A stretch of DNA of 64,000 nt. Source: Sinomonas sp. ASV322 (GTDB lineage Bacteria > Actinomycetota > Actinomycetes > Actinomycetales > Micrococcaceae). Below are positions 31,187 to 35,365 of this stretch, in pieces (positions within the stretch are counted from its first letter, which is position 1; each line of letters begins with the position of its first letter). The stretch lies in contig NZ_JAVFJJ010000006.1 of NCBI RefSeq assembly GCF_030908245.1, positions 1 through 64,000 on the forward strand, written 5' to 3'. The position numbers were made by a program, and so were the translations under genes. The notes under the pieces are model-generated. The model saw only the letters and a program-made list of their open reading frames with translations. It was not told the origin of the DNA and ran no database searches.

Positions 31187-31801
31187 CTAGCGTTGCCCTC
31201 CGAGCGCGATCGCCCGCCCACGTCGCCCGCACTCGACAAGGAGGACCACCGCGGCTGCCGCAGACAGGATCAAGACCGGCAGGTCCGCCTCCTCGCCGCG
31301 CTGCAGGGGCCAGGCCCACCAGGCAGGCAATCCGCCGCTGGTCCGTCCGAAGATTGACGACGCGAGGAGGTATCCGGTGGGGACCGTGGCCGAGTAGCGG
31401 CCGAGTGCGAGCGTACGCCCGACGACGAGGAGCGCGAGGCAGCCGGCGGTGTCCCGCAGCAGGAGCCACGCGTGCTCGACCGGGACGCCCAGGGGAAGCG
31501 CCATCGCACTGGTCAAGCCGACGACGGCAAACGCGCCGAAGAGATAGGCCGCATTGAGGGCGTGCGCATTGCGCGCTGCAGCTCGCACGATGGCCTCGTC
31601 GCCCGACGACAGGCCGGCCGCGACGATGACTGTCGCCAGCGTCGCGAGGACCGCAACAAGCGGAACCGGTGCGAACGGCATGGACCCGGAAAGCGCGGGA
31701 AGGGCCAGATTGAGGCGCGCTGTCGCGAGCGCAGTCGCGCTCGTCCCAAAGACGAGTACGAGGACGACGAGCGCCTTATGCGCAGCCAGCCACCACCTCA
31801 T
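31187..31801 (-). CDS. Hypothetical polytopic membrane protein of the peptide/ABC cassette
   Basis: I do not recognise a family for this 204-residue protein. Five or six hydrophobic helices are visible: about 8-30, 44-64, 84-104, 112-128 and 176-194. An N-terminal MRWWLAAHKALVVLVL lacks a cleavage site. It overlaps the preceding permease-like gene by 4 bp (ATGA at 31798-31801), so it is the last gene of the four-gene cassette. It could be a second transport subunit or an immunity protein. It is slightly less GC-rich than the flanking core genes. Confidence 0.7.
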   Translation of the reverse strand: MRWWLAAHKALVVLVLVFGTSATALATARLNLALPALSGSMPFAPVPLVAVLATLATVIVAAGLSSGDEAIVRAAARNAHALNAAYLFGAFAVVGLTSAMALPLGVPVEHAWLLLRDTAGCLALLVVGRTLALGRYSATVPTGYLLASSIFGRTSGGLPAWWAWPLQRGEEADLPVLILSAAAAVVLLVECGRRGRAIALGGQR

Positions 31802-33120
31802 GGTGCGTCATCCGGCGAAACCGCCTCGCATCGTTTGAGCGATTCGAGCGCACTCCGAATCCACTCGCGCTGCTCCCCCAAGGGCCGGGCCTGCAAGTGA
31901 TCGAGATCGTCCAATGTGTCGCGCGCAACCCCCGCCCTAACGCGTTCCGGCGCGACAACCCCCTTCGAGGCTTCCAGTTCAAGCCACGCCGACAGAATCC
32001 CGTAAGCCCGCAGCCATGGCCGGTAGTCAGTCGCTCCGCAGTCGATCCCCGTCAGGGGCGCCGTGTAGGCCGAAGCCGCCGCATGAATCAGTTCTGCCTC
32101 GCTCGATCTGATTCCGACGGCGACCACGGCGATGGCATCGGTTGGGTTGGAATCGCCCACTCCTGCATTCACTGCCATGAATAAGGGCATCCCGGCGGCC
32201 TCCAACCGCGAGAAGGCAGCCGCAAGGACGGGGCGAGGGTCCGAGCTGGCAAGCTGTTCTGGAAAGAGGCAAATCCGAGGTCGCTGACCGCTGCATTCAA
32301 GCTCGGACTCGGGGCGGTCCTGATAGGCAAAGGCCCCCACGTTGCGCGCAAGGAAGAGTGAACACGCCGTCACCACGGCGAGACAGGCGACAAGGCCGGA
32401 GGCGACGGCCATCGCTGCGCGAGCGCGTCGCCGGCCGACCCTTGCACGCTCCGCTCTGCCGACGGGTGGGTTGAGCGCAACGAGGGCGAGCAGAAGGACT
32501 CCGGCCGGAATGCTGAAGGCGATGGGGGCCCAGACCGCGAGGGGGTTGAGTTCGCTCGCAGGTCCGCAACAGCTGGCGAGCGCGGGCCCCGCCAGATGCC
32601 TGAGCGGGAAGTAGGGCACGGACCATGTGAACCCGAGCCAGCCGTAGGAAGACAGCATGCTCAGGGGAATCGCCGCGATAGCCGGAAGGAATCTCCCGAG
32701 CGCATATCCGAGCGATGCGTGAAAGAACACGATGGCGACATAGGCAACCGGGAGTTCCCACGGCGGACGTCCTGGTGCGCCGAAGGCGGCGGATGCGAGA
32801 AAGAGTGTTCCAACAGTCTGAACTGTGGCGCCGGCGAGCAGCGAGGGCCACAGCCGCTGTGCCGCAATGTGCCACGATGAACGCACGACGGCCAGATCGC
32901 CCAGCTTCCCCGAACGATCCCGCGATCCCTCAATCGCTGCGGAAAGCGCCGCGAGCCCGCACGAGAACAGCAGGAACAGCGCGGCGTTGCTCATAGCGGC
33001 GACCCAATGTCCTCGGATGGCTGCGTCACTGATGTAAAGCGCCGCGTAGACCCACACCAGGATCAGGCCGGGGAAGACAAGCCAAAGGGCAGGGCGGGAA
33101 GGAAGAGGGAGCACGCTCAT
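31798..33120 (-). CDS. ABC permease-like membrane protein with large C-terminal extracytoplasmic domain
   Basis: This 440-residue protein has about six helices in the first 225 residues (e.g. LWLVFPGLILVWVYAALYIS, AALFLLFSCGLAALSAAI, AYVAIVFFHASLGYALG, IAFSIPAGVLLLALVAL). A seventh helix near 243-260 is followed by a soluble tail of about 180 residues with four Cys (in ECSGQRPRICLF, IDCGATDY and KRCEA), which suggests an oxidised extracellular domain. This layout resembles permeases of ABC-2-like bacteriocin exporters but I cannot name a family. The start overlaps the ATPase stop (ATGA). It probably exports, or protects against, the peptide encoded at the head of the operon. Confidence 0.72.
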   Translation of the reverse strand: MSVLPLPSRPALWLVFPGLILVWVYAALYISDAAIRGHWVAAMSNAALFLLFSCGLAALSAAIEGSRDRSGKLGDLAVVRSSWHIAAQRLWPSLLAGATVQTVGTLFLASAAFGAPGRPPWELPVAYVAIVFFHASLGYALGRFLPAIAAIPLSMLSSYGWLGFTWSVPYFPLRHLAGPALASCCGPASELNPLAVWAPIAFSIPAGVLLLALVALNPPVGRAERARVGRRRARAAMAVASGLVACLAVVTACSLFLARNVGAFAYQDRPESELECSGQRPRICLFPEQLASSDPRPVLAAAFSRLEAAGMPLFMAVNAGVGDSNPTDAIAVVAVGIRSSEAELIHAAASAYTAPLTGIDCGATDYRPWLRAYGILSAWLELEASKGVVAPERVRAGVARDTLDDLDHLQARPLGEQREWIRSALESLKRCEAVSPDDAP

Positions 33121-33875
33121 TCCTCCCCCACGACGTAGCGGGAATAAGCCTGCCGGACCCTGTCCCGGAGGTCGATTCCGTCGGACGCCACGGAGACGAA
33201 ATCTTTTACCGTCCCGTGGAACCGCAAGACACCCCGATCGAGGATCGCGACGTACCCATACGAGTCATGAACATCCTCGGTCTGATGCGTTGAGACCACC
33301 ACGACCTTCTGGGGTTCAATCCGCCGGAGAAGCGCGGCGAACCTCTCGCGCTGCAACGGGTCGAGGCCCGCGGTCGGCTCGTCGAGCAGAATCACGTCGG
33401 CGTCATGGACCAGCGCACCGGCCAGTCCCATTCTCCGGCGCTGTCCGCCGGACAGCTGCTTCACAGGACGATCGCCCAGTGAGGAAAGGTCCACCGCCTC
33501 GAGGGCCGCGCCGGTGCTCGCCCGGGCATCCCCCGCGCTCATCCCCTTGAGCCAGCCGCAGTATGCAACATGCTCGGCCACCGTGAGCCCCGGGAACGGG
33601 CAGAAGTCCTGCGGCAGCCAGGCCACCTGACGCCTGTATCGGCGGCGTTGCCTCGAATCTGTGCGCCTGCCCCGTTCGGGCTCCACGAAAGTGGAGCCCG
33701 AACGGGGCATCAGGACGCTGGCCGCTATCCCTAAAAGGGTGGACTTCCCCGCGCCATTCGGCCCCAACAACACAGTTCTTCCCGAAGGGATCTCAAGTGA
33801 GAATCCGTCGAACACCGGCGTCGCAGAATAAGAAAATCCAATATTGTCAAGTCTCAGATTCAAGTCCCCCCACAT
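33117..33875 (-). CDS. ABC transporter ATP-binding protein (peptide cassette)
   Basis: This 252-residue nucleotide-binding domain has Walker A GPNGAGKST (near 38), the Q-loop in WLPQDFCPFP, signature KQLSGGQRRRMG, Walker B VILLDEPTAGLD and the H-loop VVVSTHQTEDV. It is of the kind that pairs with ABC-2/CcmA-like permeases for efflux. ATG at 33875 was used, but a TTG 12 bp downstream sits behind a better SD (GGGGGGA) and may be the real start. The gene begins 29 bp after the secreted-peptide gene and overlaps the permease-like gene by 4 bp. Confidence 0.93.
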   Translation of the reverse strand: MWGDLNLRLDNIGFSYSATPVFDGFSLEIPSGRTVLLGPNGAGKSTLLGIAASVLMPRSGSTFVEPERGRRTDSRQRRRYRRQVAWLPQDFCPFPGLTVAEHVAYCGWLKGMSAGDARASTGAALEAVDLSSLGDRPVKQLSGGQRRRMGLAGALVHDADVILLDEPTAGLDPLQRERFAALLRRIEPQKVVVVSTHQTEDVHDSYGYVAILDRGVLRFHGTVKDFVSVASDGIDLRDRVRQAYSRYVVGEE

Positions 33876-33904
33876 TCATGATCTAGACACTGAACGGAGC
33901 GAGA

Positions 33905-34321
33905 TCAGTAGTATTGGCTGATGCCGGCAATGCTGATCGAATTGCCCCAAGATCCGCCGTTGATCGCAGAGATTGTCCAGTGATAGCTGTCTGGGCGGGT
34001 CATGACACCCCAATTGTGAGCACCGCACGCACTCGTCCTGGTGCCGACGTTATAGTCGGGAAACCATCCGAACTCGTCGTAGAGATCGAGGCTCACGGAC
34101 GAGAAGCCCGCGGGGACTGAGCACCCCGACAAGTAGGTCACCGTTGATGCAGAGTCGAGATGATTGTCTTGCCACGAGCGCGAGCTGAAGCCGATCACCG
34201 CCCCGTAGACGGAGGAATACCAAGAACCCTCCGCTACGGCCGGCGCGGCCAACATGAACAAGGATGCCACAACAGACGCAATGAGCGCAGCGAAACGCCT
34301 CCGAGACTGACGTGTTCGCAT
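33905..34321 (-). CDS. Secreted Cys-pair peptide, candidate bacteriocin (possibly lactococcin 972-like)
   Basis: The 138-residue precursor starts with a classical signal peptide: Arg-rich MRTRQSRRRF, a hydrophobic core, and a predicted cut after APAVA at residue 30. The mature ~108 residues begin EGSWYSSVYG, are rich in Ser, Trp and Tyr, contain only two Cys (67 and 99, possible disulfide), and end SISIAGISQYY. The mature N-terminus EG[S/T]W and a following SA-TV segment recall lactococcin 972 (starts EGTW), whose operons also carry an ABC transporter and a membrane protein; the resemblance is weak and unproven. Codon use is clearly AT-richer than in neighbours. The ATG at 34321 has GGGGGAT before it, and it heads the cassette. 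Confidence 0.75.
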   Translation of the reverse strand: MRTRQSRRRFAALIASVVASLFMLAAPAVAEGSWYSSVYGAVIGFSSRSWQDNHLDSASTVTYLSGCSVPAGFSSVSLDLYDEFGWFPDYNVGTRTSACGAHNWGVMTRPDSYHWTISAINGGSWGNSISIAGISQYY

Positions 34322-34342
34322 GTTATCCCCCAGATGTCCTAG

Positions 34343-34348
34343 TTTATA
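34343..34348 (-). promoter_or_regulatory. Candidate -10 element for the peptide/ABC operon
   Basis: Minus-strand TATAAA lies 21 bp upstream of the peptide ATG, in an AT-rich stretch. A convincing -35 is not visible 17-18 nt upstream (ATCGAC at best), so activator dependence or an alternative sigma factor is possible. Confidence 0.4.
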
Positions 34349-34699
34349 GCTTACTGGCCACCGCGGGTCGATTGCCGACGGTAAAGACAATCTAAGCCCA
34401 GCCTCCAAATTTTCAGGAGGGTCGAAGAAGGCCAGTTTCACCACGTGACGGCCGCACCAGACATCCGCACGTTCTCGAATGCACGAATGTCACCACTTAG
34501 ACGGCTCTCCCGCGGATTCCCGCGGATCGGTACATCCCCCGGCGCCGCATCTAGGTACTGGGCGCGAAATATTTGTCCAGATTCCGTGGTGCTAACCCTT
34601 GAATCTCCGTGGATACTTCGAGATAAAATTCGCCGAGCTCATTCCTAGGCCGATCGAACGCTCCGGGGATACCGTGGGAGGACCGTCGAGGAGGCCAGC
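34349..34699. other. Intergenic region between peptide cassette and SIMPL gene
   Basis: These 351 bp hold no credible gene on either strand: short frames have no Shine-Dalgarno site and no conserved composition. Base composition is noticeably lower in GC than the core genome, especially 34370-34440 and 34560-34640, consistent with an acquired segment edge. No repeat or att-like direct repeat was found at its borders. The SD for the SIMPL gene (GAGGAGG) lies at its right end, about 34689-34695. Confidence 0.6.
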
Positions 34700-35365
34700 A
34701 TGGGCAGAATGCACGACACCGTGACCGTCACTGGGACTGGAACGGCGCGCGCCACACCGGACGTCGCCGTCCTCCGCCTCTCCGTCGAGGTTCGGGCCGC
34801 CATCCTGGCGGAGGCCTACGAGGGAGCGGCGGCCACGGCCAAGAAGGTCGTCGACGCCGCGCTCGAGGCCGGAATCCCGCGTTCCGACCTCGCGACGAGC
34901 GGCCTGTACGTCCGACCGGAGATGGACTGGCAGTACCGTTCCGGAAAGATCGTGGGCTACTTCGCGGGCGAGGGGTTCACGGTCAAGTCCCGCGACCTCG
35001 GCCGCACGCCCGAGCTGCTCGACGCCGTCGTCCGCGCCGCAGGCGATGCGCTGCGGATCCACGGACTCGCGCTCGAGGTGGACGACCCGGCCGCGGCGCT
35101 CGCGGCCGCCCAGGAGGCCGCGTTCGACGACGCGCGGGCGGCGGCCGAGCGGCTGGCCCGCCGGGCGGGCCGCTCCCTTGGCCCCGCCATCCGGATCGAC
35201 GTCGCGGGGCCCTTGGCGCCGGGCATGCCGGTCCCGTTTGTCCGCGCCGCCGCGGTGGCGAGCTCTGCCGAGCAGATGCCGATCGAGGCGGGCGAGGCCG
35301 AGCTGCGGGCCACCGTCACGGTCGCGTGGCGGCTCGCCGAGCCCGACGACGCCTCCTTGACATGA
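34700..35365 (+). CDS. SIMPL (DUF541) domain protein
   Basis: This 221-residue protein has the SIMPL fold from its first strand: HDTVTVTGTGTARATPDVAVLRLSV, then an Ala-rich helix with the DLATSGLYVRPEM segment and the VVRAAGDALRIHGLALEVDD stretch. SIMPL proteins include the periplasmic stress protein Omp28/BP26 and IRAK-associated proteins; the bacterial function is poorly defined. There is no signal peptide, so this one is likely cytoplasmic. SD GAGGAGG precedes the ATG at 34700. A LexA box begins immediately after its stop and belongs to the next gene. Confidence 0.85.
   Translation: MGRMHDTVTVTGTGTARATPDVAVLRLSVEVRAAILAEAYEGAAATAKKVVDAALEAGIPRSDLATSGLYVRPEMDWQYRSGKIVGYFAGEGFTVKSRDLGRTPELLDAVVRAAGDALRIHGLALEVDDPAAALAAAQEAAFDDARAAAERLARRAGRSLGPAIRIDVAGPLAPGMPVPFVRAAAVASSAEQMPIEAGEAELRATVTVAWRLAEPDDASLT

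What the first reader, a model, noticed from the sequence alone, without database searches (positions are those of the whole stretch)
31187..34321. Four-gene secreted-peptide/ABC cassette of lower GC inserted between pheS and core genes
A 138-aa precursor with a clean signal peptide and only two Cys heads an operon with an ABC ATPase, a permease-like protein with a large Cys-containing extracytoplasmic tail and a second membrane protein. Gene order, 4-bp overlaps and AT-rich codon use show it travels as one unit. The peptide does not match any family I know well: EG[S/T]W plus an SA-TV segment recall lactococcin 972, and the rest is different. It may be a new branch of exported bacteriocin with dedicated transport and immunity.
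Basis: partly seen in the sequence, partly recalled or inferred. Interest (0 to 1): 0.82.

Follow-up and report, generated by a model that had tools for sequence, protein, structure and literature searches.

The report
Secreted-protein plus ABC-immunity cassette in actinomycetes
A small horizontally acquired gene cassette makes a secreted two-cysteine protein of an unnamed family together with a three-part membrane pump; the way the parts are kept or lost in relatives suggests a bacteriocin with its self-protection, built like the lactococcin 972 system from unrelated parts.

Summary
The four genes are real and lie where stated, on the minus strand: a 138-aa precursor with a signal peptide, an ABC ATPase, a permease with a DUF7224 domain, and a 204-aa membrane protein. 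They form a ~3.5-kb insertion: in all 14 congeners sampled pheS lies 0.1-0.6 kb from the flanking SIMPL gene, without the cassette. The cassette recurs patchily: 13 other genomes of 394 Actinomycetes, nine other of 295 Micrococcaceae (five of these copies damaged), and Streptomyces plasmids. The precursor family (14 members tested) has no match above chance in Pfam, NCBIfam or PDB sequences, and its mature part does not align with lactococcin 972; this genome carries a true lactococcin 972 locus elsewhere, with other partners. A complete precursor gene had ATPase and permease beside it in 30 of 30 loci. Of 11 close Micrococcaceae permease loci six are damaged: the precursor is broken or missing in all six, the pump still open in three. 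That fits toxin plus immunity better than peptide plus exporter. Best reading: a Sec-secreted, probably beta-sandwich bacteriocin with ABC immunity, analogous but not homologous to lactococcin 972. Killing, target and the pump's role are inferred.

The parts
33905..34321 (-). 138-aa secreted precursor (signal peptide about 1-30, AVA|EGSW cleavage inferred; mature ~108 aa, Cys67 and Cys99 conserved)
   Evidence: all-beta model, mean pLDDT 64
33117..33875 (-). ABC ATPase, 252 aa, Walker A / LSGGQ / Walker B present
31798..33120 (-). ABC permease, 440 aa: helical membrane part followed by a DUF7224 domain (residues 283-431) with conserved Cys276, 284, 361, 431
31187..31801 (-). second hydrophobic membrane protein, 204 aa, no known family
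34322..34660 (.). low-GC (0.552) leader region of the cassette; presumed promoter region, no sigma-70-like site found
31187..34660 (.). extent of the insertion relative to congeners; left edge at the conserved AGTCTAG upstream of pheS, right edge approximate (about 34640-34670)

Best explanation
A mobile bacteriocin-immunity cassette. The precursor is exported by its own signal peptide (Sec, inferred from the sequence), loses it, forms one disulfide (inferred from the two conserved Cys) and folds as a small beta-sandwich (predicted, moderate confidence) that attacks the envelope of related actinobacteria (inferred). The ATPase, the permease with its cysteine-rich outer domain and the 204-aa protein form an ABC-2-type pump that protects the producer by binding or displacing the protein at the outer face of the membrane (inferred). 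Shown: cassette architecture, recurrence, insertion, lack of any known sequence family, and the asymmetric loss of precursor and pump.
For: Recurring unit: 11 of 12 Streptomyces plasmid records with a precursor hit carry the four-gene unit. Class sample: 14 of 394 genomes have the precursor, own included. Of 36 loci with a precursor or its remains, 30 have a complete precursor frame (own; L023, L025, L026, L030; 11 plasmids; L133-L145; L124), and 30 of 30 have ATPase and permease just downstream on the same strand; the third gene was found in 29 of 30, not in L144. Asymmetric loss: of 11 close Micrococcaceae permease loci (E < 1e-100) 5 are intact; in the other 6 the precursor is broken or not found, while the three pump genes are open in 3 (G214, G029, G169). 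The precursor is only 13% of the cassette's coding length, so neutral decay would more often hit the pump. Between two loci with differently broken precursors (L027, L029) the pump genes show dN/dS of 0.14-0.17; an intact pair (L025, L026) gives 0.06-0.19. Own signal peptide; tandem precursors in five loci (two in L022, L032, L133, L134; three in L135). Published parallel: of 571 pneumococcal genomes 157 keep only the non-bacteriocin genes of the lactococcin 972-like scb locus (passage of PMC11796350).
Against: No activity data and no homologue of known function. The mature precursor is more conserved (mean identity 0.32 over 24 cassettes) than the membrane proteins (0.24-0.27), where a fast-diversifying toxin would be expected to vary more. 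Orphan pumps of the class sample are remote (permease E about 1e-73 or weaker) and may do other things. In three of the six damaged close loci the pump is damaged too: G010, G160 and G253. The asymmetry rests on few loci, some in draft genomes, where a stop may be a sequencing error. dS of the compared pairs is saturated or nearly so (1.4-2.4), and the precursor losses may be recent.
Confidence: 0.6

Rival explanations
1. The pump is a dedicated exporter or processing machine for the secreted protein.
For: Linkage in 30 of 30 loci with a complete precursor; distance correlation of mature precursor with the pump proteins 0.83-0.87 over 24 cassettes.
Against: The precursor has its own signal peptide; open pump genes persist beside broken precursors (L027, L028) or with none adjacent (L147).
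Confidence: 0.12
2. The secreted protein is not a weapon but a signal, developmental factor or envelope-protective protein, and the pump senses or recycles it.
For: The precursor is fairly conserved across the class; tandem copies could be dosage; no toxin homology in sequence.
Against: Patchy distribution, plasmid carriage and absence from all 14 congeners sampled are unlike a developmental factor; loss of the precursor with retention of the pump in some loci.
Confidence: 0.15
3. A general antimicrobial-peptide resistance pump that happens to be co-transcribed with a secreted accessory (for example a decoy that soaks up peptides).
For: Related permeases are more frequent than the precursor (39 against 14 of 394 genomes), and many lie in loci where no precursor was found.
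Against: No complete precursor was seen without the pump (30 of 30), whereas a decoy could travel alone.
Confidence: 0.1

Closest known systems
Lactococcin 972 family (PF09683 / TIGR01653) and its ABC partners
   Same: Small precursor with signal peptide followed by ABC genes thought to give immunity; plasmid-borne in Lactococcus; partner genes can outlive the bacteriocin gene (passages of PMC11796350 and PMC4055356)
   Different: No sequence similarity of the mature parts; mature part about 108 residues against a 62-position family model; partners are a 440-aa DUF7224 permease plus a 204-aa protein instead of one ~700-aa membrane protein; 0 of 10 true loci examined carry these partners
Lactococcin 972-related clusters of Brevibacterium (PMC5719810, passages read)
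   Same: Structural gene in an operon with two transmembrane proteins and an ABC ATPase; in some strains on a genomic island
   Different: Authors report weak homology to PF09683; I could not compare sequences, so these clusters may or may not be the same type as this cassette
DUF7224 (PF23866)
   Same: Window permease scores 42.1 bits against a cut-off of 27
   Different: A domain of unknown function; no paper in the library held names it
ABC-2-type transporters (Wzm, PmtCD, ABCG2)
   Same: They appear among the best fold matches of the permease model
   Different: All matches weak (best E 0.34); the outer domain is not accounted for

Membership tests
Lactococcin 972 | match to PF09683 or TIGR01653 | tested here: not met
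   neither family listed for any of 14 precursors with E limit 10 (HMMER filters drop most above 0.1); positive control: own-genome locus scores 39.5 bits for PF09683 (cut-off 22) and 43.1 for TIGR01653 (cut-off 32.1)
Lactococcin 972 | profile similarity of the mature part | tested here: not met
   hhalign of 36 precursor rows against 3 members (of 10 loci known here): mature parts below 0.1% probability; full-length local match 11% and confined to the signal peptides
Lactococcin 972 | ~700-aa membrane protein plus TIGR03608-type ATPase | tested here: not met
   P0002 scores 97 bits for TIGR03608, the own-genome lcn972 ATPase 181.6 as its best hit, both below the cut-off 254.85; that locus's membrane protein is itself only a weak TIGR01654 match (17.5 bits, cut-off 189); no permease or 204-aa homologue at E <= 0.01 in 10 lcn972 loci
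Lactococcin 972 | signal peptide (Sec type) | tested here: met
   sequence read by eye; no signal-peptide program was available
Lactococcin 972 | beta-sandwich fold | tested here: inconclusive
   8-strand all-beta model, mean pLDDT 64; no Foldseek match at E <= 0.001
Lactococcin 972 | binds lipid II, blocks septation | not testable with these tools
   bench assay needed
DUF7224 permeases | score above Pfam cut-off | tested here: met
   42.1 bits vs 27
ABC transporters | Walker A, signature, Walker B in the ATPase | tested here: met
Bacteriocin-immunity systems (functional) | killing of sensitive strains and self-protection | not testable with these tools
   only genomic signs of it:

The most novel reading that the evidence does not exclude
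An undescribed, class-wide family of disulfide-bonded beta-sandwich bacteriocins of Actinomycetes, with its own two-permease ABC immunity pump whose cysteine-rich outer domain recognises the toxin: an independent solution with the same logic as lactococcin 972, spreading on Streptomyces plasmids and as chromosomal insertions, with orphan pumps acting as resistance genes.
Probability: 0.45. Interest if true: 0.72.

Novelty: new variant of a known kind. Interest (0 to 1): 0.56.

Why it matters
If true, it adds an unnamed family of secreted antibacterial proteins in a class rich in antibiotic producers, one that the bacteriocin models tried here do not see, together with a candidate resistance pump. 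It also offers a clean test of what the ABC genes beside signal-peptide bacteriocins do. For lactococcin 972 loci that point is only partly settled: PMC11796350 says data on the two partner genes are lacking, while PMC4055356 reports MICs of 800-1600 AU/mL for strains carrying the cluster against 12.5 without it (rows seen), which shows immunity of the cluster, not gene by gene.

Tried and rejected
Lactococcin 972 kinship: rejected. Phage origin: no hit in 50,697 phage records, and four scans of viral contigs found no relative. Six family hits in one genus (L011-L016, E 1.3e-4 to 9.1e-4) were dropped before counting: five lie in frames of 857-907 aa of a larger membrane protein (seen), and L014 is a 67-residue match with a stop; so 10 of the 16 genomes count. 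Fold searches gave only weak, generic matches and were not used as evidence of function; some weak matches bear toxin names and I draw nothing from them. No tRNA in the window, no flanking repeat pair that would show the insertion mechanism, no sigma-70-like promoter or terminator in 33800-34720. Papers: eight searches; I saw listings and abstract starts, and passages of PMC5719810, PMC11796350 and PMC4055356. None of the listings names this cassette; that is no proof that it is unpublished. Genome counts are lower bounds: searches scored only part of the first-look candidates of each genome (10 for the precursor profile, 4-5 for the permease profile); L124's precursor and L145's permease were missed there and found.

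Full report
What is there. On the minus strand lie a 138-aa precursor (34321-33905), an ABC ATPase (33875-33117), a permease (33120-31798) and a 204-aa membrane protein (31801-31187), then pheS from 31108. ATPase/permease and permease/204-aa gene overlap by 4 bp; precursor and ATPase are 29 bp apart. The ATPase matches PF00005 and has Walker A, signature and Walker B. The permease carries DUF7224 at residues 283-431 (42.1 bits, cut-off 27). Its outer domain has four conserved cysteines: 276, 284 and 361 are invariant and 431 nearly so among 14 homologues. Precursor and 204-aa protein match no Pfam family with the E limit at 10; in NCBIfam the precursor has only chance-level hits (E 0.02-0.04, far below cut-offs) and the 204-aa protein none.

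It is an insertion. In the genus sample (15 genomes, 14 besides this one) pheS and the SIMPL gene (PF04402) of 34700-35365 are present in all 15. In all 14 others they lie on one contig 0.1-0.6 kb apart, instead of 3.6 kb. Neither precursor nor permease was found in any of the 14 (the permease search scored five candidates per genome). At the left junction the window agrees with the congeners up to AGTCTAG, a string kept upstream of pheS in all eight congeners printed; its CTA now supplies the stop codon of the 204-aa gene. The right edge is approximate. GC3 of the four genes is 0.71-0.82 against 0.84-0.92 for five neighbours.

Relatives. In a sample of 295 genomes of the family, 16 had precursor hits; I dropped six spurious ones, leaving 10 with this genome. 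Of these 10, five precursors are complete (own, L023, L025, L026, L030) and five are damaged (L024, L027, L028, L029, L031). Three named loci show that the family is Micrococcaceae: Glutamicibacter protophormiae, Galactobacter caseinivorans and Paeniglutamicibacter terrestris. In a class sample of 394 genomes, 14 have it, this one included. Twelve Streptomyces plasmid records hit; 11 have the order precursor-ATPase-permease-third gene, and the twelfth (L021) has a truncated precursor and no ABC genes nearby; some of the 11 are identical or nearly so. Some loci have the order precursor-permease-third gene-ATPase (L138, L139, L141). Tandem precursors occur twice in four loci (L022, L032, L133, L134) and three times in L135. 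Both cysteines are invariant in the 14 precursors; in the wider set L144 has none, and a few rows have three or four Cys in all.

A family without a name. None of 14 precursors matches Pfam or NCBIfam above chance (best E 0.017), and the profile finds no PDB sequence below E 0.3. A model from four sequences is all-beta with eight strands (mean pLDDT 64, pTM 0.55) and has no confident PDB match. The permease model (mean pLDDT 72.8) resembles ABC-2 transporters only weakly, best E 0.34.

Not lactococcin 972. The same genome carries a true lactococcin 972 gene on another contig (PF09683 39.5 bits, TIGR01653 43.1 bits), followed by a ~670-aa membrane protein and an ATPase whose best NCBIfam hit is the lactococcin 972 ATPase model, below its cut-off (181.6 of 254.85). 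All ten distinct lactococcin 972 loci found were examined. Eight have the large membrane protein by homology, shortened or split in two of them (L204, L206); a ninth, L203, has a 716-codon frame and an ATPase in the same positions; L196 has neither; none has a homologue of this cassette's permease or 204-aa protein at E 0.01. Profile comparison of the mature parts, with only three lactococcin 972 members, gives under 0.1% probability.

Why toxin plus immunity. First, the precursor has its own signal peptide, so it needs no exporter (inference from sequence). Second, of 36 loci with a precursor or its remains, 30 have a complete frame with start and stop, and in 30 of 30 ATPase and permease follow on the same strand, the first pump gene within 360 bp; the third gene was found in 29. 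The counted set is led by precursor searches, and some plasmid loci are near-copies. Third, of the 11 closest Micrococcaceae permease loci, five are intact. The other six all have lost or damaged precursors: G214 and G029 have a stop in it, G160 a frameshift, G010 no usual start codon, and in G169 and G253 none was found in the fetched flank. The pump is open in G214, G029 and G169, and damaged in G010 (open ATPase frame begins after Walker A), G160 (permease ends early) and G253 (stops in the permease). G169 also has a broken precursor on another contig (L031). The precursor is 13% of the coding length, so three single hits on it by neutral chance would have a probability near 0.002; this is a sketch, with few loci and draft genomes. 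Fourth, pump genes of L027 and L029 show dN/dS of 0.14-0.17, and the intact pair L025/L026 0.06-0.19; L029's permease is shortened and the losses may be recent, so this is only supportive. Fifth, published scb loci show the same pattern: 157 of 571 pneumococcal genomes keep only the partner genes (passage of PMC11796350).

Evidence that does not fit well. The membrane proteins vary more than the mature precursor (mean identity 0.24-0.27 against 0.32). Permease relatives are more widespread than the precursor: 39 of 394 genomes in the class sample against 14 (both lower bounds). I fetched 31 loci of such permeases without a precursor hit in the first search (20 class, 11 family). One, L124, proved to have a precursor. 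By a crude hydrophobicity rule most of the others have no secreted protein in front, but most are remote, two lie near contig ends (L148, L149), and they may do something else. Three remote ones have a different small secreted protein in front (L126, L132, L155); only L132 of these also has a detected third gene.

Co-inheritance. Over 24 cassettes the distances of the mature precursor correlate with those of the pump proteins (0.83-0.87); partial correlations given the ATPase are 0.33-0.51, permutation P 0.0005, the least that 2000 permutations can give. The species tree was not controlled for, so this shows travel as a unit, not contact.

Verdict. A real, mobile, recurrent cassette with an unnamed secreted protein. 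The likeliest function is a bacteriocin with ABC immunity, similar in logic to lactococcin 972 and built from other parts. Killing, target and immunity are untested.

Noticed in passing
G000 contig C6:27743-27919 (L193:5744-5920): The window's own genome has a true lactococcin 972 locus with a ~670-aa membrane protein and an ATPase, separate from this cassette.
   Followed up: yes
window 33668-33709: A perfect 19-bp inverted repeat with a 4-nt loop lies inside the ATPase gene, in a variable loop after Walker A; none of 11 homologous ATPase genes has a perfect stem longer than 10 bp.
   Followed up: partly
L126, L132, L155: Remotely related ABC gene pairs are preceded by other small secreted proteins (163, 106 and 137 aa; 4, 4 and 2 Cys) with no clear Pfam match, which hints at further secreted families paired with this kind of pump.
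   Followed up: partly
window 31187-31189: The 204-aa gene's stop codon is made from the CTAG conserved upstream of pheS in the eight congeners printed, so the cassette joined close to the presumed pheS promoter.
   Followed up: partly
L204, L206: In two lactococcin 972 loci the large membrane protein is split or shortened, unlike the other loci.
   Followed up: no
L147 and L031 (genome G169): One genome has an open orphan pump on one contig and a broken precursor without this pump on another.
   Followed up: yes
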